A DNA stretch of 64,000 nt from Pandoraea communis (GTDB lineage: Bacteria; Pseudomonadota; Gammaproteobacteria; Burkholderiales; Burkholderiaceae). Shown one piece after another: positions 3,337 to 43,049 of this stretch (position 1 is the stretch's first letter; every line of letters begins with the position of its first letter). The notes beneath the pieces were generated by a model, which saw only the letters and a program-made list of their open reading frames with translations, made no database searches and was not told the origin of the DNA. The stretch spans positions 186,001-250,000 of the forward strand of contig NZ_CABPSJ010000006.1 of assembly GCF_902459745.1 (NCBI RefSeq). Reading direction: 5' to 3'. Position numbers and translations under genes: made by a program.

Positions 3337-3360
3337 AGCACAGCCCTCCCCTGATTGAAC

Positions 3361-25324: not shown

Positions 25325-25822
25325 TCAGAGCAGGAAGCTGATGGCAGCCAACGAGTCCAAAGAATCGACCAGCCGAACGATCTTCTGCACTAAGCGTGCA
25401 TCTTGGGTTGACACGTCGATCCGATGTTCCACCTCTGCAGCGAACAGCGAAGCATTTCCTTGGCGGTAAGCAACGACGATCTGCGCAGAACGGAGGTCGA
25501 CGATTCCATCCGAGTCGCGAACAACGTTGAACCGTGACACCGTCCGGATTGTCTTCGCCGCATTCGAGACTGACGGCGAGGATGTCGACATCAAACGTTC
25601 GACCCGCTTCTTCCGCATCTCATGGTCGTCCAGCGCATAGTTGAGCGTCGCGTAGAAATCACTGGTCGCGGGGTCGATCGGAATGACGTAAATCCCTTCT
25701 GCATTCCACAGACGCAGCCATTCCGCGTATTCTTTTCGATCCAGCAGCTCTGCTTCTTTCCAAACCAGCTCGATAGCGCGGGCCACGGTCGGCACGGCAA
25801 GTGACGTATTTTCTAGACTCAT
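25325..25822 (-). CDS. ring-hydroxylating dioxygenase beta subunit
   Basis: Small structural subunit of the Rieske oxygenase, forming the alpha3beta3 assembly. It is 165 residues from ATG 25822, which overlaps the alpha-subunit stop as ATGA; the longer frame to 25849 is rejected. Family features are AEWLRLWNAEGIYVIPIDPA, NYALDDHEMRKKRVERL and SRFNVV. Tight coupling to the alpha gene fits 1:1 stoichiometry. Confidence 0.9.
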   Translation of the reverse strand: MSLENTSLAVPTVARAIELVWKEAELLDRKEYAEWLRLWNAEGIYVIPIDPATSDFYATLNYALDDHEMRKKRVERLMSTSSPSVSNAAKTIRTVSRFNVVRDSDGIVDLRSAQIVVAYRQGNASLFAAEVEHRIDVSTQDARLVQKIVRLVDSLDSLAAISFLL

Positions 25823-27105
25823 TGTCCTTTCTCCATCAACTCCAGCCACTTTGCGTAGCCAGCGCGCATACCAGTTTCGTCGGTAGAGTGACCGTTAATG
25901 TCGCCATTCGGCAGCGTCACTTCACGATTGATGCCTCGGTTAAGAAGAATGGGGACGTCCGGGCCGGCGTAAGATCCTCGCTGGACACGCTCCCACGCTT
26001 CCGCATCATCAGGGCTGCCAAAGCCGAAGGGGCCTTGGAAGTTCTCGTGAATGCGCAGTCGCTCGCGATTTGCCTCTTCCGGCCCTCCGTCCATGGCCAA
26101 CGCGATGTGCCGAATTTCCGTTTCGTCGGCGGAAATAGGCCGAAGCACTCGGAAGAACGCCATCGAGAGCGCAAGATTAGGAAAGAGGTTAACGTTGAAG
26201 CCGACGCCCATCAGCGACCGAACGATGCGGCGAACCTCTTCTTCCGAATGGTTCTCACGCAGCGACTTCGCTAGCGGCTCGAACCGCTCAGGCAGGGGCG
26301 CCCCGTCGTCAGTCTCGATGTTCATGAGCTCTGGCACTTGCACCGCAATGCTGTGCCCATTGCCCAACGAACGACAGAAGGCCTTATCGCTCGAAATAAA
26401 GCTGGTCACTGCGGTGGCCGTCTCCTCATCGATCGAATCCATCCACGACTTGTGCACCACAGGGAAGTGATAAAGATCAGTGGTGTTCTCGAGCTGAATC
26501 TTCCAGTTTCCTTTGAACTTGAACTTGTGTTCACCGTTCGTCTTGATCGGATACCCGGCACCCTGCTTCATGAAGAGGTCGATCCACGGCTTCGCGTTGC
26601 CAAGAAAATCCTCGAGAGGCTCAATCTCGTGATTGAAACTCGCGAAAATCAATCCCTGATAGATGCCAACGCGTAGCGCCTTGAGTGGCAACTCTGACTT
26701 CTCAATGACTCCCTCATAACCGTCGCTGTACGGCAAACCTCGCAGTGCGCCGTCCAATCCGTACGACCAGCTGTGATAGGGGCAGGTGAAAGACTTCGCG
26801 TTCCCCTTGTGTTGCTCACAAACAGTAGCGCCGCGGTGTCGGCAACGGTTCTCAAAAACGTTGACGCTTCCGTTTTTGTCGCGCACCACGATCACCGGTT
26901 GGCGGCCAATCAAAGTGGTACGAAAATCACCCGGGTTAACTAGCTCGCTTTCATGCGCGACCCAAATCCAGGTCTTGTAGAAGATTCGCTCAAGCTCGGC
27001 CTCGAAGAGTGACGGATCGTAGTAAAGCGAAGGCAAAAAACGGTCCGCCTTCACGCGACGCTTCAGGTCGCTCACGTCGATGGTTTGATATGTAGGTTCG
27101 CTCAT
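25819..27105 (-). CDS. Rieske ring-hydroxylating dioxygenase alpha subunit
   Basis: Catalytic subunit that adds oxygen to an aromatic ring. The Rieske [2Fe-2S] ligands are C88-x-H90 and C108-x-x-H111 (CPYHSW); the mononuclear iron site is D210, H213 and H218 in LENTTDLYHFPVVHK. At 428 residues it is of normal length. It resembles the anthranilate/benzoate/salicylate groups more than biphenyl or naphthalene enzymes by its short length and sequence style, but I cannot name the substrate. Transcribed away from a LysR gene across a palindromic operator; beta subunit, SnoaL-like protein and reductase follow. Confidence 0.93.
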   Translation of the reverse strand: MSEPTYQTIDVSDLKRRVKADRFLPSLYYDPSLFEAELERIFYKTWIWVAHESELVNPGDFRTTLIGRQPVIVVRDKNGSVNVFENRCRHRGATVCEQHKGNAKSFTCPYHSWSYGLDGALRGLPYSDGYEGVIEKSELPLKALRVGIYQGLIFASFNHEIEPLEDFLGNAKPWIDLFMKQGAGYPIKTNGEHKFKFKGNWKIQLENTTDLYHFPVVHKSWMDSIDEETATAVTSFISSDKAFCRSLGNGHSIAVQVPELMNIETDDGAPLPERFEPLAKSLRENHSEEEVRRIVRSLMGVGFNVNLFPNLALSMAFFRVLRPISADETEIRHIALAMDGGPEEANRERLRIHENFQGPFGFGSPDDAEAWERVQRGSYAGPDVPILLNRGINREVTLPNGDINGHSTDETGMRAGYAKWLELMEKGQ

Positions 27106-30319: not shown

Positions 30320-31227
30320 ATGGGACGTCAAAACGTGGCGTTTCTTTCAGAGGGCGCGCTTCTGCGCGGCTGATTCTATCTGCCCATTCAATCGCGGCGT
30401 GCGGGTGAACACCCGGCCATCGTGATGGCGCACGGGTTCTCGGCGGTAAAGGGGCAATATCTCGATCGTTATGCTGAGGCGTTCGCTGGCGCACGTTTTG
30501 CTGTGCTCGTCTACGGCCATCGCAATTTCGGTGACGGCGAAGGGATACCGCGCCAGGAAGTTGATCCGGCGTTGCAGAAACGGTGCTATCGCGACGCGAT
30601 TACCTACGTCTCGACTCGGGCAGACGTGGACGGCACACGCATAGGGATCTGGGGTTCAAGTTTCAGCGGTGGCAATGTGCTTGAGGTTGCGGCGGTCGAT
30701 CGCCGAGTGAAATGTGTGGTTTCGCAGCTGCCGCAGATCAATCTGTATCAATCGGCATTGCGTCGGACACGCGCAGATCACGTTACCGCGTTGTTAGGGC
30801 GTTCGAGGCGGACCGCGCGCAATGCTTCGTCGGGGGGCACCCCAGACATCTTGCCTGCGACGAGTGTCGATCCTGCAGAGCCACGCGCGATGGCGGGAGC
30901 CGACAGCCACGCATTTTATGCAGGCACAGCAGCGTTCGCGCCGCAGTGGCGAAACGAGGTGACGTTGCGCAGCGCAGAGCGATCGCGCGAAAACGAACCT
31001 GCGGAGTACATCACACGCATCTCCCCGACGCCGCTGTTGATGATCGAGGCCGACGCAGGCACGTTGACGGCCACCGATCTGTGCCTGCGTGCGTATGAGG
31101 ATGCGCTACCACCCAAACAACTTGCGATGATTTCACGAGGCACTTTACGCTCTATGCGAAACACTTCGAGGTGACGAGCCAGTGTGCTATGGAGTGGTTC
31201 GTTCGCCATCTATCTTTCGATGAATGA
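30320..31227 (+). pseudogene. alpha/beta hydrolase gene with stop and frameshift
   Basis: The intact product would be a dienelactone-hydrolase/acyl-peptidase-like alpha/beta hydrolase of about 300 residues. ATG 30320 (upstream AGAGGG) gives GRQNVAFLSEGALLRG, then TGA at 30371 where FYLP follows, probably a former Trp codon. The frame continues with AIVMAHGFSAVKGQYL, the nucleophile elbow GIWGSSFSGGN and TPLLMIEADAGT. Near 31135 it shifts; the true ending (HFTLYAKHFEVTSQCAMEWF) is in another frame to TGA 31225. It could once have served the adjacent aromatic pathway. Confidence 0.8.
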
Positions 31228-31526: not shown

Positions 31527-32378
31527 CTAGAGAATCACAGCCCCGGTGGTTGAACTACATTCGCTAACCCGACGGAATTCAGCCGGGGTCAGGTACTGCA
31601 AACTCGAATGCGGGCGCACTTCGTTGTAGTGAGTGCGCCAGTCCTCGATCACGATCTTCGCCTCGATCCGATTGCGAAACCACTCCATCGCCAAACATTC
31701 ATCACGAAATTTTCCGTTGAAACTCTCGTTGGTGCCGTTCTGCCATGGTTTGCCGGGGTCAATCAGTGCCGTCTCAATCTGCTCCTGGACTGCCCATTTC
31801 AACAGCGCTGTGCTGACAAACTCCGGCCCGTTGTCTGAGCGCAGATAACGTGGCGCGCCGTGCACGCTAATTAACCGGCTCAGCACTTCAATGACTCGAC
31901 GCGAGCGAATCGATCCCGCCACATCAATCGCCAGGCACTCCCGCGTATATTCATCGACCACCGTCAGGCATTTAACTTGCTGGCCGTTCGCACAGGCATC
32001 GAATACGAAGTCATAGCACCAGACCGAGTTGCGGGTTGCTGGCGCATGGGGTCTTGGACGACTGCCTGCCACGCGGCGTCTACGACGTTTCATTGGTACT
32101 TGCAGGCCGGCCTGCGCCCAGAGCGAAGCACAACGGTCTCGACCGACCACGATGCCTTCACGCCCGAGCAATACTCGAATGCGACGCGAACCGAAGCGCG
32201 GGAATTGCCCCGACAATGCTCGCATCGCATCGATCACTGGCGCGTTCTTGCTCGGCATCTTGAGCTCGTAACCCAAGCTCGAACGGCTGACCTGCATCAG
32301 CGTGCACGCTCGCCGTTGGCTCAAGCCCCTTGCCATCGCAAACCGGGCTTGCTCACAGCGAGCCTGCACGCTCACCAC
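31527..32378 (-). CDS. IS3-family transposase OrfB (DDE catalytic part)
   Basis: Catalytic transposase half, 283 residues. It has the HTH_21-type start (ARGLSQRRACTLMQVSRSSL) and the rve core with acidic residues in WCYDFVFDAC, YLRSDNGPEF and GTNESFNGKFRDECL, and ends YNEVRPHSSLQYLTPAEF. It is made by -1 frameshift from orfA; its own first codon is a GTG inside the heptamer. The frame is intact. Confidence 0.92.
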   Translation of the reverse strand: MVSVQARCEQARFAMARGLSQRRACTLMQVSRSSLGYELKMPSKNAPVIDAMRALSGQFPRFGSRRIRVLLGREGIVVGRDRCASLWAQAGLQVPMKRRRRRVAGSRPRPHAPATRNSVWCYDFVFDACANGQQVKCLTVVDEYTRECLAIDVAGSIRSRRVIEVLSRLISVHGAPRYLRSDNGPEFVSTALLKWAVQEQIETALIDPGKPWQNGTNESFNGKFRDECLAMEWFRNRIEAKIVIEDWRTHYNEVRPHSSLQYLTPAEFRRVSECSSTTGAVIL

Positions 32379-32635
32379 TTTTTTGCGCCGATCTCCTTCA
32401 GGACTTGGATATCGAGCGCCTGGTCGGCGACCAGCTTCTTCAGTCGGACGTTCTCCGCTTCGAGTGCCATGAGGCGCTTGATGTCATCGCTGACCATCTC
32501 ACCGAAGCGCTTTCGCCAAGCGTAAATCGACGCCTCGCTCACGCCGTGGCGCTTGGCCACCTCAGGCACTGTGTCTCGATCTGCCTCGCGCAGTATCCGC
32601 ACAATCTGTTCGTCGCTGTACCGGCTTTTCTTCAT
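32372..32635 (-). CDS. IS3-family transposase OrfA
   Basis: 87-residue DNA-binding part: KKSRYSDEQIVRILREADRD, HGVSEASIYAWRKRFGEM, then a short leucine-rich coiled coil (LMALEAENVRLKKLVADQAL). The last codons (GCA AAA AAG TGG TGA) contain the slippery heptamer that shifts ribosomes into orfB. The opening and length are those of the IS407 group. Confidence 0.92.
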   Translation of the reverse strand: MKKSRYSDEQIVRILREADRDTVPEVAKRHGVSEASIYAWRKRFGEMVSDDIKRLMALEAENVRLKKLVADQALDIQVLKEIGAKKW

Positions 32636-32692
32636 ACCAACTCCTCATCTGAGCTGAGGAGCCATTATCTCTAGATTTCTTTGGTACGAAAT

Positions 32693-32883
32693 TTCACGGA
32701 CAGGTCAGGTGCGCGAGCAACGCGCGTCGGCAGGGTTTGTCGGTGCCACCGCGCCAAGGGGTTGCCCTCGCCACGTCCATTCCAGGTGGACCGCGTAGCC
32801 GTTGAAGTCCGTGTAACGGGTGAGCAGGTGATGCTCGTAGGCGTAAGTGCGGACGTGATCGAGCGCATCGCGCTGCGCGTCCA
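32693..32883. other. unassigned coding-like scrap between IS and integrase remnant
   Basis: On the minus strand one frame reads DALDHVRTYAYEHHLLTRYT, then DFNGYAVHLEWTWRGQPLGA. It looks protein-coding but has no start or end here and I cannot name a family. It replaces the N-terminal half of the second integrase. Confidence 0.35.
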
Positions 32884-33524
32884 GTGCAGTCCGCGTATTT
32901 GCAGGTCTTGCTTATCACCGGCGCGCGCCGGGAGGAACTCGCTGCCCTGCGCTGGGAAAATGTCGACTTCCAGTGGCGAAGTCTTCAGATCGCAGACAAG
33001 ATCGAAACCGGGCGTGTAATTCCCCTCACGCCCTTTCTGGCCTCCCTATTGCTCAATCTGAAGCAACTCAATGAAACGCCACCGAGCAAACGCCGCCTGC
33101 GCAGCCTGGAAGAACGCGGACAGAAATGGGAGCCATCCCCTGGGTGTTTCACAGCCTCAATTCGGGGAAGGGACGGATTGCCGAACCGCGCTACGCGCAC
33201 AACCAGGCTATCGAATCCGCCGGTCTGCCTCATGTAACGCTACACGGCCCGCGCCGATCCTTCGGCACACTATCCGAATGGTGCTAGGTTCCCGTAGGCG
33301 TCGTGGCACAGATTCAGGGGCACAAGCCGTCAGCGCTGGCTGAAAAGCACTATAGACGCAGGCCGCTCGACATGTTACGAATGTGGCATGACAAGATTGA
33401 GTTTTGGATGCTGGCGCAAGCGGGAATTGAGCCTCCCCAAGCAACAACAGCGACCGAGGAAGCCCACTTTAGCACTGCACAGCAAACCATCTCGAATCAA
33501 ATCGCATCACCTCGTGCTTACTAA
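32884..33524 (+). pseudogene. 3' half of a second P4-type integrase, frameshifted
   Basis: Closely matches the C-terminal half of the integrase at 3361: ITGARREELAALRWENVDFQ, DKIETGRVIPLTPFLA and AQIQGHKPSALAEKHYRRRP, down to the Tyr nucleophile. A one-base deletion near 33138 (cccatCCCCtggg against tcgCCCtggg in the first gene) shifts the frame, and a TAG replaces the Glu codon near 33285. The N-terminal arm-binding part is missing. Two related integrases about 29 kb apart suggest two elements of one family were once in tandem. Confidence 0.88.
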
Positions 33525-33687: not shown

Positions 33688-34476
33688 TCAACTTACCGAG
33701 TTAACCTGGGCCTCGCGCAATGCAATCCTAATGTCCTCAGCCTCACCCGGCCGAGCGACGAAATGAGTGCGCCTCGACGGAATCTCGTCGAAGATATTTT
33801 CGGAGGCAGTGTAGTAGTACGTCGCAAGGGAGCGCCGGGAGCGGTTCGACGGGCAGCTCAGCGGATCAGGGTGACCATGAAACGAACAGTCGTCCGTCGC
33901 AAAAATAACGCATCGGTTCATCACGGGTGCGACCTTCTGCACACAGCGCTGCATGTCGCGGCTCCACAACTCCAGGTCCCCACCAAACCCGGACTCCCAG
34001 CCTTCGTTCAGATACAGGATGACATTCAACCTTCGGAGCAAAGAAAGGCGCTTATGGATGCGGAAATCGCGGTGAATTCCCAGTTTCCCGCCGGGCAATA
34101 TTTCATGGAAACCACCCCCTTCGAAGTACGGATCTCCAAGGACACCCGAAATACCCGACACGGCGCCGAGAAACTCCAGAAATGGCGCCGAATTCAATAA
34201 CTGAAAAAACTGCCGGCAAAAAGAACTGCAATTTTCTGGCGAGTACTGTCTTTTCAAACTGCCACGGTAACCAATGTCATAAAGATAATGATCTACCTCG
34301 GCGGAGGGAAATTCCCGGCACAAGCGCGCTACGATGTCCGGCGGGAAAAGATCGTCCACCACAACATGCGGATAAGGTGTGGCGAGCTGATAGGCATCCG
34401 CCAACGGCGTGCCATAGTCACGCGCTCCCTGGATGTCCAGACGGAACCCATCAAGATATGTCACGGGCAAATACAT
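33688..34476 (-). CDS. 2OG-Fe(II) oxygenase (prolyl-4-hydroxylase-like)
   Basis: Probable hydroxylase using 2-oxoglutarate and Fe(II). The double-stranded beta-helix ligands are H-x-D in LGIHRDFRIHK and the distal His in DCSFHGHPDPL, with the later RRSLATYYYT carrying the 2OG-binding basic residue. The N-terminal PYPHVVVDDLFPPDIVARL is the usual opening of this family, often found on glycan or small-molecule loci. ATG 34476 is preferred (GAGG upstream) over GTG 34488. It is the last gene of the 39.6-33.7 kb biosynthetic operon. Confidence 0.82.
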   Translation of the reverse strand: MYLPVTYLDGFRLDIQGARDYGTPLADAYQLATPYPHVVVDDLFPPDIVARLCREFPSAEVDHYLYDIGYRGSLKRQYSPENCSSFCRQFFQLLNSAPFLEFLGAVSGISGVLGDPYFEGGGFHEILPGGKLGIHRDFRIHKRLSLLRRLNVILYLNEGWESGFGGDLELWSRDMQRCVQKVAPVMNRCVIFATDDCSFHGHPDPLSCPSNRSRRSLATYYYTASENIFDEIPSRRTHFVARPGEAEDIRIALREAQVNSVS

Positions 34477-34491
34477 CAAGGGCCTCACGTG

Positions 34492-35376
34492 TTACAAGAA
34501 TTTGAATAGAAAGCGGCTTCCCGGCCAGCTTCGCCAACGCTCAATACGCTTGGCTCTGCGCAGAAGCCGGGCAAGGCGTACAGGCAAGTCGCTACGGATG
34601 AACGGGCCAACCGTCTGAGCTCGGAACCGTAAACGTCGGACGACCTCCCGGTCCACATACGCCTCCTCCTCCCAATACTGATGATCGCGCCATCGGCAGC
34701 GTAATAGCATCGCCTGCCAGCGTGTGAATGGCCTAAGTGTGCTGCTACGCCCGAGGGAGGCATTCCGCCCATGCCGTCGGATAAGTTGCAAAGGCTGCGG
34801 GTCGATCTGACGTGCATCCAACGCCAGGGCCAGCGCATGGATCCACACGTCATGACTGATCTGGTCGGGCAGCGGCTGGGCCAGCGTGGCCAAAGGCCTC
34901 CTGATCACCGTCAGCGATCCGGTAACGAATCTCTCCGGCGCATACAAGGCCTTTACCTGTCCAAGCTTGCATGCGCCTTGCCATATCAGATTCTCGTCCA
35001 CCAGTTTCCCGTCATGGATCACCAGCAGAACATCGTCCCGGGACTCCATTTTTTGCACCACAGATGCAATTTTCTCCGGAAACCAGACATCGTCCTGGTC
35101 ACAGAAAAACAGAATCTCTCCTTGCGCCATTTCCAGACAGCAACCGAAATTCCGGGAATAGCCCAGATTTTTTTCATTCCGCTGCATCCGTACGGCAAAG
35201 GGAGCGCACGCTGCATAGCGTTCCAGTATGTGCCAACTGGCATCCGTGGATGCGTCATCGCACACAACCAGCTCATCGGGCAACATCGACTGCGCAGCAA
35301 GGCTTTCCAACTGCTGCGACAGGAACGCTTCTCCGTTGAAAACGGCGAGCAGCACCGAAATACGGGGGCGTGTCAT
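34492..35376 (-). CDS. family 2 glycosyltransferase
   Basis: Transfers a sugar from a nucleotide donor. From ATG 35376 it has 294 residues, a GT-A fold with ISVLLAVFNGEAFLSQQLES, VVCDDASTDASW and the metal-binding DQDDVWFPEK, plus VTGSLTVIRRPLA and DQISHDVWIHALALAL typical of rhamnosyl-type GT2 enzymes. The start overlaps the stop of the nucleotidyltransferase gene (ATGA); the longer frame to 35475 is rejected. The C-terminus is basic with no membrane segment. In this operon it may glycosylate the small product or attach it to a glycan. Confidence 0.87.
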   Translation of the reverse strand: MTRPRISVLLAVFNGEAFLSQQLESLAAQSMLPDELVVCDDASTDASWHILERYAACAPFAVRMQRNEKNLGYSRNFGCCLEMAQGEILFFCDQDDVWFPEKIASVVQKMESRDDVLLVIHDGKLVDENLIWQGACKLGQVKALYAPERFVTGSLTVIRRPLATLAQPLPDQISHDVWIHALALALDARQIDPQPLQLIRRHGRNASLGRSSTLRPFTRWQAMLLRCRWRDHQYWEEEAYVDREVVRRLRFRAQTVGPFIRSDLPVRLARLLRRAKRIERWRSWPGSRFLFKFL

Positions 35377-36134
35377 GGCATAGGCACCGATTGACCGGGA
35401 TCGCAGGGCACGGGAGCCTCGAAAATCAGAGCAAAAATCTCTCTCAGTGTTTGCGGGCGGAGTTGTCTGGCGCAAAGGTATTGGTCCAGCCGGTCATGCA
35501 ACAGCGGGTCGCTGACCGCCAACGCACCCCACCATTGGCTAAACGACGTGGTATGCATGCCACGCACGTGCGCATGGAACTGCGGTATGGCGGCAATCAG
35601 CCGTGACGACAGCAGCCAGGCTTTCCCTTCATCCACGGGAGCCAGCTTCTCCAGCCGACGGATCAGTCGCTCAGCCCAAACCTGATTGCGCAAACGATCC
35701 ACCTCGTTCCACTCGGGCCGGTGAGCGCTCTTCCAGGCTCGCAGCGTGCTTTGCCATTGCAGCAGTTCGGGTGGCCTTGCGTCCCAGAGAATTCGCGCAT
35801 CTGCGTAAACCCAGTTTGACGCGAGGTCAGCCAGTGTCGCAGCGCGCGTTTGCACATGAAGATCCACCTGAACCTCCTGTGCAAAACCGAAAATACCGCC
35901 GTGGGCAGGCTCATCGGTCAGCAGCAGCAAGTCGACATCCGAGTCGCCGAATTCCGCCGGCAACGGACGCCGCGCCAGGCTGCCATACAGCACCACCCCC
36001 GAAAAGGGGATGGGCATCAAGACCCGGAGTTGCGCCAGCAATTGCTGCACATCGGCGTGGACAAAATACTGATGCAGTGCGTCCGCCAGCGCGGGCCCAA
36101 GCACCGGCCCGACCGCAACCGGCCGGGAGCTCAT
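35373..36134 (-). CDS. nucleotidyltransferase-domain protein
   Basis: 253 residues with the polymerase-beta-type motif VLYGSLARRPLPAEFGDSDV, then DLLLL, and a third acidic residue in VQVDLHV. It most likely adenylylates or otherwise nucleotidylates a small molecule or protein. The C-terminal half is helical and resembles the partner region of aminoglycoside-type nucleotidyltransferases (ERLIRRLEKLAPVDEGKAWL). Coupled on both sides by ATGA overlaps (LeuA-like gene upstream, GT2 downstream), so it belongs to the pathway rather than being a stray toxin. Confidence 0.78.
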   Translation of the reverse strand: MSSRPVAVGPVLGPALADALHQYFVHADVQQLLAQLRVLMPIPFSGVVLYGSLARRPLPAEFGDSDVDLLLLTDEPAHGGIFGFAQEVQVDLHVQTRAATLADLASNWVYADARILWDARPPELLQWQSTLRAWKSAHRPEWNEVDRLRNQVWAERLIRRLEKLAPVDEGKAWLLSSRLIAAIPQFHAHVRGMHTTSFSQWWGALAVSDPLLHDRLDQYLCARQLRPQTLREIFALIFEAPVPCDPGQSVPMP

Positions 36135-37384
36135 GACGACGCTCCCGCCGGGGATGACGCCTCGTCCCGAAGCAATTGCTCGACGACGAAGCGGATCTCA
36201 TCCACGCCCGTCAGACAGCCCTGGCGGCTACGGCAATACGCCCAAAGACGCGCGACCCGTTCCGGCTGCACGTCCACACCACAGACATGCAACGCATACT
36301 CCACCGCGGCGCGACCGCTGCCCGGCCCCAGCAACAAAGCCTGCTCGCGACCGAGCGCGCGCGCCGGCACGGCCGAGTAGACCAGGTCCTCATATGCCTC
36401 ACCGAAGTCGCGGCTCTTGAGAATTGCGGCGACATGGGTGCCCGTGGAAGTACTGAAAGCATCGGCGCCGACCAGCGGCGCCTGCGGGGCAATGCCGATG
36501 CCCGCGGATTCGGCCAAAAGGGCACATAAGCTAGCCATGGGCTCCAGAGCGAAGTGGCTATTGCCGGCTTCCCGCAACAACCAGATGAACTGCTCCAGCG
36601 GCGTATTGCCGGTGCGCTCTCCGACGCCCAGAAAAGTGCCGCTTATCATTGACGCACCGCTCGTGGCGGCCGCCCACGCGTTGGCCAGACTCAAGCCTTT
36701 GTCATTGTGGCCATGCCAGCCCATTTCCACGGAGGAATGGATCCGTGCGAGCACATTCATCACGAATTCGGTCAGGCGCCGAGCCCCTTCGGGAACACAG
36801 TCACCCACGGTGTCGCAAATCACGACGATGAGGGCACCCCAGCCGGTCGCCGCTTGCAGCCCCCGGGTCAGCGCTTCCGGCCCTGCGCGGGAAGCATCTT
36901 CGTACGACACCCGGAACGGCAAGTTTTCCCGTGCGGCCAAAGCACACGCTTTCTCGAGCTTTTGCAGTGCTTGTTCGAACGTCCAGTGTTCGACCCGCAG
37001 CCGTAAATCGCTGATGCCGATAAAAATGTCCGCAGCCATGGGGGCCTGCGTCGCGTCGCGGATCGCCAGAATCGCCTGAACATCGGCCTCCACGGCGCGG
37101 GCCATGAACACAGGTTCTATCGGCAACTTCCGGTCATGGACATGCCGGGCCAGCGCTGTGCAGCGGGCGTACTCTTGTGGTGATGCCGCCGGAAATCCCA
37201 GAAAGGCATGTTGCACGCCAACCGCGGCGCTTAATTCGAGCAGACGGATTCTTTCCGCAAGCGCAGGCTGCCGCAAACGTACGCTTTGCAAGGCGTCGCG
37301 GATATCCTCTTCCAATCGGACATGTCGCAGATGATGCGCCGGAGCAGGGTTCCAGGACGCCAACAGATTGCATACCTCGGACAT
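36131..37384 (-). CDS. LeuA/homocitrate-synthase-like DRE-TIM metallolyase
   Basis: Likely condenses acetyl-CoA with a 2-oxoacid (Claisen-type), as LeuA, CimA and NifV do. About 417 residues from ATG 37384, 6 bases after the aminotransferase stop. The metal site HGHNDKGLSLAN and the GVGERTGNTPLEQF segment are intact. The first-strand motif, normally LRDGEQ, reads IRDALQ: Arg and Asp are kept but Gly-Glu is changed, so substrate or geometry may differ. There is no LeuA regulatory domain. Placement next to an aminotransferase suggests building a non-standard amino acid. Confidence 0.82.
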   Translation of the reverse strand: MSEVCNLLASWNPAPAHHLRHVRLEEDIRDALQSVRLRQPALAERIRLLELSAAVGVQHAFLGFPAASPQEYARCTALARHVHDRKLPIEPVFMARAVEADVQAILAIRDATQAPMAADIFIGISDLRLRVEHWTFEQALQKLEKACALAARENLPFRVSYEDASRAGPEALTRGLQAATGWGALIVVICDTVGDCVPEGARRLTEFVMNVLARIHSSVEMGWHGHNDKGLSLANAWAAATSGASMISGTFLGVGERTGNTPLEQFIWLLREAGNSHFALEPMASLCALLAESAGIGIAPQAPLVGADAFSTSTGTHVAAILKSRDFGEAYEDLVYSAVPARALGREQALLLGPGSGRAAVEYALHVCGVDVQPERVARLWAYCRSRQGCLTGVDEIRFVVEQLLRDEASSPAGASS

Positions 37385-37389
37385 ATGCT

Positions 37390-38496
37390 TCAACCCTCAG
37401 CCGTCAGCAGAGCACGCAAGCGGGTACAGGCCAACTGGAACATCGCAGGATTGCGCTGGAGCGCCACGCGCAGGTATTTCTCACCTGCGTGAGGATGGGC
37501 CCAGTAAAATTGCACGCCAGTGAGTACGGACAGGCCGTGTTCCGCCATCAATGCCTGCCACTGCGTGGCCGTGCGCGGCCCTGTGACCTGCAACCACGCG
37601 ACGCTCATGCGCCCCCCCTCTTGCAGACAGAGACAGGTTCCTTCCAGCGCCTCCTGCAAGGCCAGACGATTGGCAGCAATGACGGCGTGCACCTGCTCGG
37701 TACCCAACGCGACAAAATTCCGCAACAACTCGATGGCCACCGGCGATACGTGCAGGATAAAGTCGGAGTAGATATGCGCGATGCGCGGCGCCAGCCCCAT
37801 GGAAACGCTAAAAAAGGGCGCCTTGATTTCCTTGGTTGGCCAAGTTTTGCCCGTATCTTCGATCAGGATGCAATCGATCCCGGAGCGCGCGAGCATGGCG
37901 TATTGGTCATAGACTGCCCCGGGCCGCTGAAAGAAGCGGAAGGTCGCATCCAACACCAGCAGGCATTTTTTCTTTTCGCAGAAATCAATCACGACCTGAA
38001 GGTTTTCCTGCGGCAGCTCCATTCCGCTCGGATTGTTAGGCGCAACCAGAAACAGCACATCCGCTTCAAGGCGCTCCAGATGCATTGGCAATTCATCAGG
38101 CCGGCTTTGCATCCAAGCCTCAGGGAATACCTGCAACGGAACGTCATGGCGACGCAGGATGTCATGCAGATTGTCGAAGCAGGGCTCGATCAACGCCGCG
38201 GTGCGCTTTTCCAGGCGAAGGTAGTTCGCCACGACTTCCAGGCCGATCGACGCGGTGAAGCACATGAAGTACGACCAGGCATCGTGGTCACAGGTCTGGC
38301 GCGCCGCCCCGAGAAAGGTTTGCACATAGGCCAGCTCAATTTCCCTCTGTTGCATGCGATCGACTTGCATGAAGATGCGAGGGAGATTCTGAATAATTGC
38401 ACTTTCCTCCGCACTCAATTCACGATAGGCATGACCGTCCGCCAGATTCAATTGATTGGACAGAGCCGATATTTGTTCTTCTGTAAGATTGTGCAC
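37390..38496 (-). CDS. PLP-dependent aminotransferase class I/II
   Basis: Fold-type I aminotransferase of 368 residues. It has DVLFLVAPNNPSGMELPQEN (substrate and PLP contacts), VLDATFRFF (Asp for the pyridine nitrogen) and the PLP lysine in IEDTGKTWPTKEIK. The start is GTG 38496. It is divergent from biosynthetic aminotransferases such as HisC and resembles those of specialised-metabolite operons. It could aminate the 2-oxoacid made by the LeuA-like enzyme, or act as a cyclase/decarboxylase variant. Confidence 0.82.
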   Translation of the reverse strand: MHNLTEEQISALSNQLNLADGHAYRELSAEESAIIQNLPRIFMQVDRMQQREIELAYVQTFLGAARQTCDHDAWSYFMCFTASIGLEVVANYLRLEKRTAALIEPCFDNLHDILRRHDVPLQVFPEAWMQSRPDELPMHLERLEADVLFLVAPNNPSGMELPQENLQVVIDFCEKKKCLLVLDATFRFFQRPGAVYDQYAMLARSGIDCILIEDTGKTWPTKEIKAPFFSVSMGLAPRIAHIYSDFILHVSPVAIELLRNFVALGTEQVHAVIAANRLALQEALEGTCLCLQEGGRMSVAWLQVTGPRTATQWQALMAEHGLSVLTGVQFYWAHPHAGEKYLRVALQRNPAMFQLACTRLRALLTAEG

Positions 38497-38519
38497 AGCA
38501 GTCAGATAACTATTAAAAA

Positions 38520-39653
38520 TCAGCGTTTGCTTCCGATGGAATGCAGTTGCTCCGCGAGGAAGGCATGGCGGGCATGGAATTCATCGCGCATCACATTGGT
38601 CTGTCGAATCAGTCGCTCCGTTCGGAACGCGGTGCGACCATGCAGAACGCGCAGATTGTCAAAAACCATGGCGTCACCCGCTTCCATGGGATACCAGACG
38701 GTATAGGCACCGGAATAGGCAATCTCCAATGCCTTGCGCAATGCTGCATAGACGGCATCCATCTGCTCCGGGTCGATGCGCAGGGCAGACATGGTGCGCT
38801 CGTTAAGACGCACCTCCGTCAACTCGCCCGCCGAGTCCCTCATAAAGGCGGGATGATTCGAGACAATGATTTCGTTGCCGGCGCGTCGCGCATGACGAAT
38901 AGGGGTCTTGCACAGCACTTCGTACGCCGCAGCGTCGAGAGTTTGCAACTGTTTCGCGCAGGCGTGACTGTCCGTCATCGAAGACACGCCACCGCCATCG
39001 CGGCTGGGCGTTATGCAATGAAAAACATTGATGCCGGTGGGCACAGGTCGGTACGTTTCATCGGTATGCGGCAGGATCTCGACCGGGAAATCGGACAAAT
39101 GGCTGCCTTGTTCGCGCAGTTGCAGATCGGTGATGGCGCCAAAATGCGTGTCACGCGTATAGCCAAGCATCCGGGTCAACGCGGCGGTTTCTGCGGGATC
39201 GGTCCCGACATTCTTCACCACCACGAAGCCATAGCGAACCACATGATCGAGTAACCGGTATCGCTCGCGATCGTCGTGCAACGCCAGCCGATAGTCGGCC
39301 GTGGGAATCTCGGGCAAGGTCATGTCCCAGAGAGTCTTCTGCGTATGCGACGTGGCTTGCACGTGGCAGTTGCTCCGCAGCCATGCAAGGGCGTACCGGG
39401 ATCGATGGTCACCATCATCCCAGACGACATCGAGGCAAGCGCCGTCCCATGCTACGTGGCGCAACGTCACGTCCTGCGGAATCTTCAGCCACGACTGAAA
39501 ACGGCTGCCGCTTTCATGATCGCCGCAAATCTCGCACGCGCAATTGTCACGCAGCCAAAACTTGCTGTAACGGCTGACACTCCCGTCGCGCCAAGCCACG
39601 TCCATAAAACGCGAACCCACTTCAACCGTGACAATGTCGTTGATCTTATGCAT
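38520..39653 (-). CDS. gamma-butyrobetaine-hydroxylase/TauD-like oxygenase
   Basis: 2-oxoglutarate-Fe(II) dioxygenase, 377 residues. The N-terminal GBBH-type domain carries a CACEIC cysteine pair and a WLRDNC signature; the catalytic domain has H-x-D in ILPHTDETYR and the distal His in DNLRVLHGRTAF, followed by the 2OG-binding Arg region. It is the first gene of the minus-strand operon, starting 67 bases from the divergent hypothetical gene. The substrate is probably an amino acid or betaine-like compound, given the family. Confidence 0.86.
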   Translation of the reverse strand: MHKINDIVTVEVGSRFMDVAWRDGSVSRYSKFWLRDNCACEICGDHESGSRFQSWLKIPQDVTLRHVAWDGACLDVVWDDGDHRSRYALAWLRSNCHVQATSHTQKTLWDMTLPEIPTADYRLALHDDRERYRLLDHVVRYGFVVVKNVGTDPAETAALTRMLGYTRDTHFGAITDLQLREQGSHLSDFPVEILPHTDETYRPVPTGINVFHCITPSRDGGGVSSMTDSHACAKQLQTLDAAAYEVLCKTPIRHARRAGNEIIVSNHPAFMRDSAGELTEVRLNERTMSALRIDPEQMDAVYAALRKALEIAYSGAYTVWYPMEAGDAMVFDNLRVLHGRTAFRTERLIRQTNVMRDEFHARHAFLAEQLHSIGSKR

Positions 39654-39720
39654 TTCTACCGATATCGAAATCTGAAATAAAATACGAATTCATCCAAATT
39701 TGCAGTCGTCGCCCTTGGCA

Positions 39721-40308
39721 ATGAATGCTACGCACACGCTGGAATCGCCTATTCAGACCATGGATGATCTGGATAAAAAATTCTTAAAATCGTACGTCAG
39801 ATCGAACATACGCTTTCCCCAGACACGCTTTTATTTCATTTTGGATTTCTGTGGGAAATTGCATTCCGACGATATCCCAAGACTAAACGGGTTCGATGGC
39901 CTGTCGGCAACGTCCGTCAGCGCAGATGCGTTGGTACGGCTGGCACAGGCGCAACATCGCCGGCGTTCGGTCAGAAAGGAACCGGATGTTGCCGAGATCG
40001 CCCGCGACATCTCAAAAACGGTAGCAGCCATGCGCGAGTTCCTCGATCGATGCCGCGTGGAGGAAGGCATGCCTGCCGCTGCACTACAGAGTTGGATCGA
40101 ACAATGTCGACAACTGACTGCCTGGATCGACGCCTCATCCTTGTCGCGGGAATACCTGGACTTCCTGTCGCCACGCCAACCCGGCGTGGCCGGGAACGTC
40201 GTGCGCATGGTCAGTCCTCTGGCAGTCGCAATGCAGTCTGCACCCCGCCTTGGCGTTCTGGAGACACTCTGGCAGGAAATTGACAAGGAGGTCTGGGTCA
40301 TCCGATAG
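39721..40308 (+). CDS. hypothetical protein divergent from the biosynthetic operon
   Basis: Not recognised. About 195 residues from ATG 39721 (TTG 39700 is an upstream alternative). It is mostly helical, with a basic stretch (AQAQHRRRSVRKEPD), no membrane segment and no signal peptide. It ends 29 bp before the 3' end of the convergent methyltransferase gene. It could be a regulator, a carrier-like helper or an immunity function for the operon's product; nothing in the sequence decides. Confidence 0.6.
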   Translation: MNATHTLESPIQTMDDLDKKFLKSYVRSNIRFPQTRFYFILDFCGKLHSDDIPRLNGFDGLSATSVSADALVRLAQAQHRRRSVRKEPDVAEIARDISKTVAAMREFLDRCRVEEGMPAAALQSWIEQCRQLTAWIDASSLSREYLDFLSPRQPGVAGNVVRMVSPLAVAMQSAPRLGVLETLWQEIDKEVWVIR

Positions 40309-40337
40309 ATCGGGGTGCCGTCCATGGGCTTGCTATG

Positions 40338-40976
40338 TCAGATTTTCTCAAAGAGGAATGTGACCAGCCTGGGCGGACGCCCAGCATCGCGGTCATGCCA
40401 GGCCTCATCCATATCCACCAGGCGAAGCTGATGTTGCCGCGCCGCCTGGAGAAAGTGGCTGATCTGATGGTCAAACGCAGGCACCGTCAGGTCCTCGCTA
40501 TTGCGGACATAGCGCGCCATGCTGCCCTGATACTTCTTTATGGGATGGAGCTCACTGATGAAAAAACGACCTCCCGGCTTCAGGCAGCGCCGCACCTGAG
40601 CAAACACCGCGTCGAGTCGTTCCACGTGCTGCAACACCAGGTTGCAACTGATCAGATCATGTGAAGCACTGTCCACCGGCCACGGCTGGCTGATATCCCA
40701 CTCCAGGAATGCGACGTTTGGCCGCACCGCTTTTTGACGTGCGATACCGATCATTCCCGCAGAAAAATCCATTCCCAGAACGCTTTCCGCACGCGCCGCA
40801 AAAAATGGAATGTTCTTTCCCGTGCCACAGCCGCAGTCAATGACCGCTTGAAAAGCCTGATTCGCAAACTGCTTCTCTGTCACCCAGGAGTCGAGGTCAC
40901 GTGTGATGTTTTCGTCGTTGTCGTACGTGGTGGACCACGTATCGTAGCCGGCTCGAATTGACATAATCGAATGCAT
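40338..40976 (-). CDS. class I SAM-dependent methyltransferase
   Basis: Methyltransferase with the SAM motif VIDCGCGTGKNIPFFA, acidic loop LGMDFSAGM, and the later LISCNLVLQHVE and LKPGGRFFISELHP. About 212 residues from ATG 40976; the start is uncertain because no site is strong (the frame runs to 41021). UbiE/BioC-like architecture. It lies outside the main operon, separated from it by the convergent gene at 39721, but on the same strand as the operon. It may modify the pathway product. Confidence 0.82.
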   Translation of the reverse strand: MHSIMSIRAGYDTWSTTYDNDENITRDLDSWVTEKQFANQAFQAVIDCGCGTGKNIPFFAARAESVLGMDFSAGMIGIARQKAVRPNVAFLEWDISQPWPVDSASHDLISCNLVLQHVERLDAVFAQVRRCLKPGGRFFISELHPIKKYQGSMARYVRNSEDLTVPAFDHQISHFLQAARQHQLRLVDMDEAWHDRDAGRPPRLVTFLFEKI

Positions 40977-41119
40977 TTTTTTGCGAGCGCGGGAGGAGCG
41001 CTCGTTGTGCAACAGTCCCAATGGGCAGGAACACTTAAGTGCAGTACGTTACAGCATATCTTGAGGCATTCCCAGATGGATTCCGAGCCTAATTACGCGC
41101 CTCCCACACTCAGGCCGGA

Positions 41120-41908
41120 TTATTGCTCGGCCAACACGTTGCCCTGACGATCGACCAGCGCCACCTTGACGATTTGTGCCTTGACAGACTTGTTCGACAT
41201 GTCGGCGGATTGCGTGTAGCCATAGACCACCAGCGTCGGCGCCGCGCCACGCGCGCGCATCGACTCGATGTTTCGGGCTGCGTCTTCATTGGCAACCGCC
41301 AGATAACGGAAGCCATCTCCATTGCTGAAACTCAGACGGTACTCGCCGTTATCGTAGAAATAACGGAACGAGCCGCTCTCCCACAACGAACTGTCGAGCG
41401 GGAAGCTCTTCCTCTCGAAGTCGTACTTCTGAACAGGATTGCTCACGGTAATGCGGAAGTAGCGCTGTGCCTTGGCCTGCGCAACCGCCTGATCGATTCG
41501 TGGCTTGAGGGCTGCAAGCAGATCGCGCTTGCGGAACTCGTCGTTCGCGCCCGCATAGTCACGCGACATGCGATTGGCGATCTGATCGTAGTCGACCGGC
41601 ATGTCGGCCAGCGCGAGGTACGCGAACATCAACTGATTGCCGCTGTTGTATTCGACATAGCTCGATGCAGGCGTAGCCGGATCTCCGTTGGGCAGCGCCG
41701 CCTGCGCGGCCTGCTGCTGCGCCTGTGCCACGGCCCGCAGCGAAGTCGCGTCTGCCAGATTCGGCGTTGCGGGGGCGGCGTCGGCGGCGGGCTTGCCCTG
41801 CGGCGCCTTGTCGCCACAGGCCGACAATCCGACCGACGCTGCGGCGAACGCCACCGTCAGCACAAGATGTTTGAAACTACGTTGCAGAGCGAGCGTGTGC
41901 GTATGCAT
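41120..41908 (-). CDS. DUF4852-type lipoprotein
   Basis: Exported lipoprotein of 262 residues. A signal peptide with lipobox GLSAC (acylated Cys near residue 32) precedes a low-complexity Ala/Pro linker and a folded domain (QYFRITV-like strands, then PLDSSLWESGSFRYFYDNGE). ATG 41908 has AAGGA upstream. It is the last minus-strand gene of the sigma-factor locus and has the same cell-envelope theme as its neighbours. Molecular function unknown. Confidence 0.75.
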   Translation of the reverse strand: MHTHTLALQRSFKHLVLTVAFAAASVGLSACGDKAPQGKPAADAAPATPNLADATSLRAVAQAQQQAAQAALPNGDPATPASSYVEYNSGNQLMFAYLALADMPVDYDQIANRMSRDYAGANDEFRKRDLLAALKPRIDQAVAQAKAQRYFRITVSNPVQKYDFERKSFPLDSSLWESGSFRYFYDNGEYRLSFSNGDGFRYLAVANEDAARNIESMRARGAAPTLVVYGYTQSADMSNKSVKAQIVKVALVDRQGNVLAEQ

Positions 41909-41998
41909 GATGGGCATCCTTATTGAGGAATACTCGGGATTCGAGTGCGTTCATAGGTGGGAATAACGCGTGAAGTCGATGTCGGTCGACGGTGCGAA

Positions 41999-42775
41999 TC
42001 AGCGCTTGGCCGCCGTCCAGCCGAGCACGCCGGTTGCCGCGAGATACAGGCTCACCAGCACGGCGAGATATCCCCCCAGCCCGATCGACACGGCCTTGAG
42101 CGCTTCACGAACGAGTTCGCTGGCGAAGTCTGCCGCCTGCTTGCCGCCGAACATCGTTGCCGCGCCCTGAGCTTGCGAAATGCCGTCGCTGATGTTCATG
42201 TAGATGCCGGCCATCAGCACCCCCATGAAGAGGAGCGGCAACAGGTTCGCGAGATGCGCGCGCGGATCGCGCACGAAGTAAGGGGCCAGCGGCGCGAACA
42301 GTGCGACTGCGGCCACTACACCGTACACACCTGCGCTGCCGCCGTTGCCGCCCAGCGCGTTGATCATGCCGCCCGGCGCATTGATCAGGCCCAGCAACTT
42401 CCACAGCGAAATGCCGACCTTGTAGTTCGACGACACCTGCACCGTGATGGTGTTCAGGAAGAACCAGGACACGGCCAGCAAGCCCATCGCGCCAAGCGTG
42501 CGCGCCCCGAAGCGGGCCACGAGCGCATTACCGCGCTGCTTGACTGCGGAGAGTGCCTCGTCAGTCGCCTCGCGGGCGAGCTGGCTATCGGAGACCGCAC
42601 GCAGTTGCGCCAACTGGCCTGCTTCGTCGATCAGCGCATCGACCGTCATGTTCACAGCGGGGGCCTGCTCCGATTGCCACACACCTTCCAGGGTGAACGG
42701 ATATTGGTGACCGCCAATGCTGACAAGGCCGGGGCCGGTGCTCGTGTCGCGCAAAATCTTGCCACGTTGGTTCAT
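41999..42775 (-). CDS. inner-membrane protein, about four membrane segments
   Basis: ATG 42775 follows GGAGA and gives 258 residues; the 5' extension to 42883 is not coding. The N-terminal 90 residues are soluble (PGLVSIGGHQYPFTLEGVWQ), then hydrophobic segments near residues 95-115, 150-175, 185-205 and 235-255. No transporter motif is recognised. Its place in the sigma/anti-sigma transcript suggests it belongs to the regulon. Confidence 0.7.
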   Translation of the reverse strand: MNQRGKILRDTSTGPGLVSIGGHQYPFTLEGVWQSEQAPAVNMTVDALIDEAGQLAQLRAVSDSQLAREATDEALSAVKQRGNALVARFGARTLGAMGLLAVSWFFLNTITVQVSSNYKVGISLWKLLGLINAPGGMINALGGNGGSAGVYGVVAAVALFAPLAPYFVRDPRAHLANLLPLLFMGVLMAGIYMNISDGISQAQGAATMFGGKQAADFASELVREALKAVSIGLGGYLAVLVSLYLAATGVLGWTAAKR

Positions 42776-43049
42776 CGTTTCTCTCCAGTGCTTGGTGTCG
42801 CATCTGCGGCACGCTGAGGGGTTGGGTCGAGCGCACGGCCGTCTCACGGGCCCGCGCCGTTGCCCGCCGGGCTCATCGAGCATCGCGGCGGATACCCCCT
42901 ATTCGGAGCGCCCCGGCAAAACCGGAAAAGAATCTGAGAAATATTTTCGCGGGCGAAATCCCCGCGCGACGCGACAGGCGCGCGGACAAAAACAAAGGGG
43001 GCCGAAGCCCCCTTGATCCTGCGTGTCGATGCGCGGCAGCGCCCCCCGG
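42776..43049. other. intergenic region with a probable terminator
   Basis: No gene. Near 42998-43014 the sequence GGGGGC-cgaa-GCCCCC forms a short GC-rich stem followed by TTGATCC, a possible terminator of the sigma/anti-sigma transcript (A-rich side at 42990 on the minus-strand downstream end). Confidence 0.4.

What the first reader, a model, noticed from the sequence alone, without database searches (positions are those of the whole stretch)
33688..40976. Unassigned biosynthetic operon: two 2OG oxygenases, aminotransferase, LeuA-like synthase, nucleotidyltransferase, glycosyltransferase, methyltransferase
Six minus-strand genes are tightly packed, three junctions being ATGA overlaps. Chemically the set could extend a 2-oxoacid with acetyl-CoA, aminate it, hydroxylate it twice, activate or adenylylate it, glycosylate and methylate it. 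There is no NRPS, PKS or ribosomal precursor and no transporter, so standard cluster detection may miss it. I know of no described pathway with this combination.
Basis: partly seen in the sequence, partly recalled or inferred. Interest (0 to 1): 0.85.

Follow-up and report, generated by a model that had tools for sequence, protein, structure and literature searches.

The report
Cryptic Pandoraea amino-acid tailoring operon
An accessory six-gene operon in the bacterium Pandoraea probably oxidises an arginine-like amino acid, extends it with acetyl-CoA and hydroxylates it to build an unknown small molecule; the three core genes also sit together in a Streptomyces.

Summary
The operon is real. 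Six minus-strand genes lie head to tail (33688-39653); the methyltransferase is outside that run, beyond a plus-strand gene (39700-40308). The 'aminotransferase' belongs to the O2-using PLP arginine-oxidase family (MppP/RohP). The PLP gene is in 3 of 32 Pandoraea genomes held, in one with a truncated operon. A Streptomyces genome (G1275) has the PLP, LeuA-like and TauD genes within 4.6 kb at 47-49% identity, followed by NRPS condensation and adenylation domains and an MFS exporter. Both PLP enzymes have Gln where 78 of 79 aligned relatives have the Glu matching MppP Glu15. The nine other Streptomyces LeuA-like loci found, and a Streptomyces plasmid, have an aconitase-like neighbour; none is detected at the two cassette loci. 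Best reading: amino acid to oxidised 2-oxo acid, to a 2-substituted malate that is hydroxylated rather than fully homologated. The TauD enzyme keeps its metal sites but has Asp at a quaternary-ammonium cage position in both lineages. Product, substrate and the roles of nucleotidyltransferase, glycosyltransferase and second oxygenase are unknown; no enzyme was assayed. No described pathway was found in the open-access searches made.

The parts
38520..39653 (-). TauD/GBBH-like Fe(II)/2OG oxygenase (P0006), first gene of the operon
   Evidence: Pfam TauD 124.6 bits and GBBH-like_N 58.8 bits; TmpA, DfmD and BBOX are the nearest solved sequences; 48% identical to the G1275 copy
37390..38496 (-). 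MppP/RohP-type PLP enzyme (P0005), predicted O2-dependent amino-acid oxidase
   Evidence: TIGR04462 MppP 159 bits, below its cut-off of 450; four PDB sequences of the family at E 8.7e-62 to 3.6e-50; residue and clade analysis
36131..37393 (-). LeuA/homocitrate-synthase-like (HMGL) enzyme (P0004), predicted acetyl-CoA condensing enzyme
   Evidence: Pfam HMGL-like 130.9 bits; homocitrate synthase 6ktq E 5e-33; motif comparison
35373..36134 (-). nucleotidyltransferase-like protein (P0003)
   Evidence: GS..SDVDL motif read by eye; weak matches only: HalB E 0.046, PDC-M70A E 1.6e-4 over residues 28-93; no Pfam match at E 0.1
34492..35376 (-). family-2 glycosyltransferase (P0002, from its ATG; the listed ORF runs to 35475)
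   Evidence: Pfam Glycos_transf_2 94.6 bits; homology to P. nosoerga ends inside it
33688..34488 (-). 2OG-FeII_Oxy_3 oxygenase (P0001), last gene
   Evidence: Pfam 59.9 bits; not matched in the P. nosoerga locus
39700..40308 (+). orphan gene P0018, divergent from the operon, no known family
   Evidence: codon-position composition; no Pfam, NCBIfam or PADLOC match, no plasmid match; 95.5% identical in P. nosoerga
40338..41021 (-). class I SAM methyltransferase (P0008; the finding ends at 40976), separate unit, membership uncertain
   Evidence: Pfam Methyltransf_11 76.7 bits; CysG/BelI not among 39 PDB matches
31527..33461 (.). left edge: transposase-type rve ORF (IS3 label recalled) and tyrosine-integrase remnant
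   Evidence: Pfam rve, HTH_21 and Phage_integrase; 33300-33461 is 77% identical to the end of the integrase gene at 3355-4734
41119..42883 (-). right flank: DUF4852 gene and the next gene, where homology to other Pandoraea resumes

Best explanation
An accessory biosynthetic operon built on a three-enzyme core. (1) The MppP-type PLP enzyme uses O2 to deaminate and oxidise a basic or arginine-like L-amino acid to a 2-oxo acid, with or without a 4-hydroxyl or a double bond. (2) The LeuA-like enzyme condenses that 2-oxo acid with acetyl-CoA to a 2-substituted malate. (3) Instead of an aconitase and a dehydrogenase completing a homologation, the TauD-like 2OG oxygenase hydroxylates the compound. 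In Pandoraea the product is then probably glycosylated (GT2), hydroxylated again (P0001) and nucleotidylated (P0003, tailoring or self-protection); in Streptomyces the corresponding building block is probably loaded on a small NRPS. Shown: genes, families, kept catalytic residues, recurrence of the core. Inferred: every reaction, the order, the substrate and the product.
For: The core trio recurs in Streptomyces G1275 at 48.8, 46.7 and 47.9% identity within 4.6 kb, PLP and LeuA-like genes overlapping by 4 bp. P0005 keeps Lys217, Asp214 and His22 (79 of 79 relatives each) and Asp20 (78 of 79), the counterparts of MppP Lys221, Asp218, His29 and Asp27 in the printed alignment. P0004 keeps R32, D33, H227 and H229, and shares its altered motifs with the KN37 and G1275 homologues. 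All ten other LeuA-like loci of this subfamily looked at (nine of the ten; and KN37) have an aconitase-like neighbour, and the four with enough DNA (L120, L150, L151, L152) also a dehydrogenase-like one; tblastn with two sets of these proteins finds none in the window (64 kb) or in 51 kb around the G1275 cassette. P0006 keeps HTD, the distal His, three cysteines and a His of the Zn site, and the Arg aligned with TmpA R288.
Against: No enzyme was assayed. P0005, P0004 and P0006 fall below NCBIfam equivalog cut-offs. Gln8 speaks against arginine itself. Host leucine enzymes could still complete a homologation. In P. nosoerga the glycosyltransferase is truncated and P0001 unmatched, so the distal genes may be dispensable or the operon decaying there. 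The trees do not put the cassette PLP enzymes together: one clade in 0% and 4% of bootstrap trees, though one clade is not rejected (p-AU 0.278), and the tool warns of long branches.
Confidence: 0.5

Rival explanations
1. The LeuA-like step starts a full one-carbon homologation completed by housekeeping LeuCD and LeuB, giving a homologated amino acid that is then hydroxylated and decorated.
For: The ten other LeuA-like loci of the subfamily looked at carry an aconitase-like neighbour, so the subfamily seems used for homologation elsewhere.
Against: Such genes are undetected at both MppP-linked loci, in two phyla; no second, ordinary aminotransferase gene is in the run to re-aminate the product.
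Confidence: 0.2
2. The operon decorates a surface polysaccharide or glycan: GT2 and P0001 belong to a saccharide module and the core trio makes an amino-acid-like substituent.
For: Of five neighbourhoods of P0001 relatives examined (44 plasmid records matched), two lie among glycosyltransferase genes and one beside KpsF and sulfotransferases.
Against: The other two lie beside a polyketide synthase or in no clear context. No flippase, polymerase or sugar-nucleotide gene was noticed beside the operon (translations and scans; not every gene was scanned). The Streptomyces relative lies beside NRPS domains.
Confidence: 0.15
3. A phosphonate pathway of the FR-900098/fosfomycin/pantaphos kind, in which a homocitrate-synthase-like enzyme extends phosphonopyruvate.
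For: LeuA-like enzymes do this in those pathways (PMC12871164, passages); P0006 resembles TmpA and DfmD, which act on a phosphonate; the genome has a PEP mutase motif on another contig.
Against: None of the 7 PEP-mutase-family matches lies on the contig that holds the operon; an MppP-type enzyme has no role there that I know of; P0006 departs from the cage residues.
Confidence: 0.04
4. A beta-lactone or malate-ester compound of the cystargolide/belactosin kind: LeuA homologue plus O-methyltransferase, no NRPS or PKS.
For: Those clusters lack NRPS/PKS genes and use an isopropylmalate synthase homologue and an O-methyltransferase (PMC11408123, passages); P0008 is a methyltransferase near the operon.
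Against: None of the ten proteins scanned in each matched an ATP-dependent ligase or beta-lactone synthetase family; CysG/BelI are not among the 39 PDB matches of P0008, and P0008 is not in the gene run.
Confidence: 0.04

Closest known systems
MppP / RohP / Ind4 PLP-dependent arginine oxidases (mannopeptimycin, azomycin, indolmycin)
   Same: Same family by sequence; catalytic Lys, Asp and His counterparts kept
   Different: In a clade of seven with 100/100 support apart from the other sampled relatives (no named RohP or Ind4 row in that tree); Gln8 in place of the Glu15 counterpart; coupled to a LeuA-like enzyme, not seen at the 79 other loci kept
LeuA-like enzymes of Streptomyces with aconitase-like partners (e.g. 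Streptomyces sp. KN37 plasmid)
   Same: 32-45% identity to P0004; Leu for both the Glu of LRDGEQ and the Asn of NGxGER in KN37, and in the two others read, L150 and L151
   Different: No aconitase- or dehydrogenase-like neighbour detected; PLP oxidase and TauD partners instead
Cystargolide/belactosin pathways
   Same: No NRPS/PKS; a LeuA homologue whose malate-type product is used directly (PMC11408123, passages)
   Different: No ligase match among the proteins scanned, different methyltransferase, extra PLP oxidase and oxygenases
Gamma-butyrobetaine hydroxylase / TmpA / DfmD 2OG oxygenases
   Same: Domains, facial triad, Zn site
   Different: The BBOX Tyr194 counterpart is Asp188 in Pandoraea and Asp in Streptomyces; the Trp181 counterpart is Thr175 in Pandoraea but Phe in Streptomyces

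Membership tests
MppP-type PLP arginine oxidase | sequence homology over the whole enzyme | tested here: met
   four PDB sequences, E 8.7e-62 to 3.6e-50, residues 2-365
MppP-type PLP arginine oxidase | catalytic Lys, Asp218 and the likely signature His29 | tested here: met
   K217, D214, H22; 79 of 79 relatives each; His29 as signature: PMC6411801 passages
MppP-type PLP arginine oxidase | Glu at the MppP Glu15 position (its role in guanidinium binding is recalled, from no call) | tested here: not met
   Q8 in P0005 and P. nosoerga; of 79 other rows 78 have E and L055 has Q; G1275 also Q
MppP-type PLP arginine oxidase | NCBIfam equivalog cut-off TIGR04462 | tested here: not met
   159.1 bits against 450
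MppP-type PLP arginine oxidase | O2-dependent oxidation of L-arginine | not testable with these tools
   needs an enzyme assay
LeuA / homocitrate synthase | HMGL domain with Arg-Asp and HxH motifs | tested here: met
   R32, D33, H227, H229
LeuA / homocitrate synthase | Glu of LRDGEQ and Asn of NGxGER | tested here: not met
   both Leu, as in KN37; the host's own LeuA-like protein L002 has the canonical residues
LeuA / homocitrate synthase | C-terminal LeuA regulatory domain (LeuA only) | tested here: not met
   only HMGL-like and a weak HCS_D2 match
Gamma-butyrobetaine hydroxylase (quaternary-ammonium substrates) | HTD...H iron triad and N-terminal Zn site | tested here: met
   alignments to BBOX and DfmD and invariant columns of A4; Zn ligand identities recalled
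Gamma-butyrobetaine hydroxylase (quaternary-ammonium substrates) | aromatic cage at BBOX 177, 181, 194 (numbers recalled, consistent with the printed chain) | tested here: not met
   F171, T175, D188 in Pandoraea; Tyr, Phe, Asp in G1275, i.e. two of three aromatic there; a fourth cage residue lies outside the printed alignment
Phosphonate pathway | PEP mutase gene in the cluster | tested here: not met
   7 PF13714 matches in the genome, none on contig C6
Cystargolide/belactosin pathway | CysG/BelI-type O-methyltransferase | tested here: not met
   not among the 39 PDB matches of P0008
NRPS/PKS cluster | condensation, adenylation or ketosynthase domain beside the core genes | tested here: inconclusive
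   none in the ten frames of the Pandoraea locus scanned; condensation and AMP-binding domains beside the core in G1275

The most novel reading that the evidence does not exclude
The Glu-to-Gln change shared by the two LeuA-linked PLP enzymes marks O2-using PLP oxidases that act on a neutral arginine analogue (for example a ureido or amide amino acid) and feed a Claisen step giving hydroxylated alkylmalate amino acids: a class of natural-product building block not previously described, made in both a beta-proteobacterium and an actinomycete.
Probability: 0.25. Interest if true: 0.8.

Novelty: new variant of a known kind. Interest (0 to 1): 0.55.

Why it matters
It joins O2-using PLP oxidases to LeuA-like acetyl-CoA condensing enzymes, a pairing not seen at the 79 other PLP-gene loci kept from a genome scan, and gives a testable marker (Gln at the Glu15 position, with LeuA-like and TauD neighbours and no aconitase) for finding more such loci. 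The Pandoraea version showed no NRPS, PKS or precursor peptide among the frames scanned and could be missed by rule-based cluster finders.

Tried and rejected
Rejected: plain aminotransferase; methyltransferase as part of the gene run; the 509-aa plus-strand ORF as a gene; phosphonate pathway; anti-phage system (weak nucleotidyltransferase-type matches for P0003, and a generic 2OG domain model for P0001); trimethylammonium substrate for P0006 (less clear for the G1275 copy). Led nowhere: viral contigs; plasmid searches with P0003 and P0018; direct repeats as island ends; P0003 in 321 genomes of the class, found only in the window's own; paper searches. The P0003 structure job was accepted but had not finished at any poll, so no fold search was made. 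Not examined: 183 of the 263 PLP-gene relatives that one search did not keep; DNA beyond 4.2 kb at six of the ten loci; many other genes of the window. The scan did not return G1275, although its PLP gene contains one of the two patterns, so that collection is not complete for this question.
Full report
Where it lies. The window is part of a 5.7-Mb genome, contig C6. G016, listed as of the same genus, has the locus on a contig of the same length and at the same position as L040, which is named Pandoraea nosoerga LMG 31109; I therefore take the genus to be Pandoraea. DNA identity of that locus to the window is 96-97%. P0005 occurs in 3 of 32 genomes of the genus and in 1 of 349 sampled genomes of the order, the window's own. 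Operon DNA matches only G000, G003 and G016, while homology to six genomes (G003's second copy, G015, G019, G022, G024, G026) starts at window 41118-41119. To the left are a transposase-type ORF and a tyrosine-integrase remnant, whose end is 77% identical to the end of the integrase gene at 3355-4734. GC3 is 0.63-0.71 in the six genes and 0.75 and 0.80 in two genes of the right flank, but two genes farther left are also low (0.66 and 0.61), so composition does not single out the operon. The presence pattern and the flanks make it accessory, probably horizontally acquired. In P. nosoerga homology stops at window 34954, inside the glycosyltransferase, and P0001 has no match at the locus.

The genes. 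Pfam and NCBIfam give TauD/GBBH-like, an MppP-like PLP enzyme, HMGL/LeuA-like, nothing firm for P0003, GT2, and 2OG-FeII_Oxy_3. P0003 carries a GS...SDVDL motif, read by eye, and weak matches. The plus-strand ORF 39700-40308 separates the run from the methyltransferase and fits coding composition in its own frame.

The PLP enzyme. Its nearest solved sequences are 6c3a (recalled to be RohP), 7n79, and two MppP sequences. A scan of one genome collection found 263 relatives, of which 80 were kept. tblastn of P0001-P0004, P0006, P0008 and P0018 against those 80 loci found the operon only in P. nosoerga (L040), with one weak stray match each in L109 and L110. In the alignment of 81 rows, His22, Asp214 and Lys217 are in 79 of 79 rows other than P0005 and L040, Asp20 in 78; position 8 is Glu in 78 and Gln in one, L055. 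The printed MppP alignment puts position 8 at MppP residue 15; that Glu15 contacts the guanidinium group is my recollection, from no call. A tree of 84 rows places P0005, L040, the G1275 copy, L041, L042, L043 and L056 in one clade (100/100) with a long stem. Within it the three cassette rows are together in 0% of bootstrap trees, and in a 17-row tree in 4%, with one clade not rejected (p-AU 0.278); the tool warns that long branches meet here. The four other clade members keep Glu and show no LeuA-like or TauD partner in the DNA held. L042 lies beside two P450s, two aminotransferases and a methyltransferase; L041 has the PLP domain in one ORF with a 2OG-Fe_Oxy_2 domain, beside a polyketide synthase.

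The LeuA-like enzyme. Of 349 genomes sampled in the phylum only the window's own has a match at E 1e-38. A plasmid search found a 35% relative in Streptomyces sp. KN37, in an NRPS/PKS neighbourhood with aconitase- and dehydrogenase-like genes, sharing the altered motifs. A profile search found such genes in 10 of 295 Streptomyces genomes, 32-47% identical to P0004; in 1 of 296 of the class, G1275 again; and in 8 of 199 relatives of G1275, all among the ten. Nine of the ten have an aconitase-like gene next to the LeuA-like gene; in L150, L151 and L152, fetched with more DNA, a dehydrogenase-like gene follows. The tenth, G1275 (L149), has instead homologues of P0005 and P0006, then come an FAA-hydrolase-type gene in two frames (between the LeuA-like and TauD genes), a condensation domain, an AMP-binding protein and an MFS transporter. 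KN37 and L150 aconitase- and dehydrogenase-like proteins have no tblastn match (E 1e-4) in the window or in 51 kb around the G1275 cassette. My first motif patterns for HxHND and GERTGN failed on L150 and L151; they read HGHDD and LGLGERAGN, so the Leu at the Asn position is kept but the rest varies. The G1275 PLP enzyme also has Gln at position 8.

The TauD-like enzyme. Alignment to human BBOX (HTD at 202-204 of the chain) puts F171, T175 and D188 of P0006 at BBOX 177, 181 and 194; TmpA has Tyr, Phe, Tyr and DfmD Phe, Phe, Phe there. G1275 has Tyr, Phe, Asp. So the cage is broken at one position in both lineages and at a second in Pandoraea only. That BBOX, TmpA and DfmD share aromatic residues for the trimethyl group, and that TmpA R288 binds the phosphonate, is from PMC9296572 (passages); the aligned Arg is R286.

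How it works. The PLP oxidase would supply a 2-oxo acid, the substrate type of LeuA-like enzymes, and the TauD gene stands where aconitase-like genes stand beside the other LeuA-like genes. I therefore favour a hydroxylated 2-substituted malate over a homologated amino acid. A LeuA homologue whose malate-type product is used directly has a precedent in cystargolide and belactosin biosynthesis (PMC11408123, passages). The roles of P0001, P0002 and P0003 are guesses; P0001 relatives lie in mixed contexts (five of 44 plasmid records examined). No product can be named.

Literature. Read as passages: PMC10367076, PMC7497351, PMC6411801, PMC12144892 (pandorabactin siderophores, a different, NRPS cluster), PMC9296572, PMC11408123, PMC12871164. 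All other titles were seen in search listings only. No described pathway combining an MppP-type and a LeuA-like enzyme appeared in the listings of searches, nor this operon in the listing of one search on Pandoraea (15 of 24 papers listed).

Noticed in passing
39700-40308 (+): Orphan gene P0018, 202 aa, no family; coding-like composition, 95.5% identical in P. nosoerga.
   Followed up: partly
L041 9299-11848: Gemmatimonadaceae MAG: MppP-like domain in one ORF with a 2OG-Fe_Oxy_2 domain, beside a polyketide synthase.
   Followed up: no
L009 6097-16136: Bartonella kosoyi plasmid with an MppP-like enzyme, NAD(P)-dependent oxidoreductase, ATP-grasp protein and MATE exporter: a possible separate small-molecule cluster.
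   Followed up: no
L132 381-3270 (G000 contig C10): An ORF with the PEP mutase motif EDKxxxxxNS followed by a possible phosphonopyruvate decarboxylase (judged by eye): the same genome may make a phosphonate.
   Followed up: no
L011 11954-13648 (P. nosoerga): The glycosyltransferase reading frame runs on into unrelated sequence after the point where homology to the window ends.
   Followed up: partly
30422-31174 (+): ORF with a match to UilS-type quorum-quenching lactonase below its cut-off (87.9 bits, cut-off 400).
   Followed up: no
G003 C1:538739-540854: G003 holds a second copy (79%) of the DUF4852 block that flanks the operon; the same search listed none in G000.
   Followed up: no
25819-27105 (-): Rieske-type ring-hydroxylating dioxygenase alpha subunit.
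   Followed up: no
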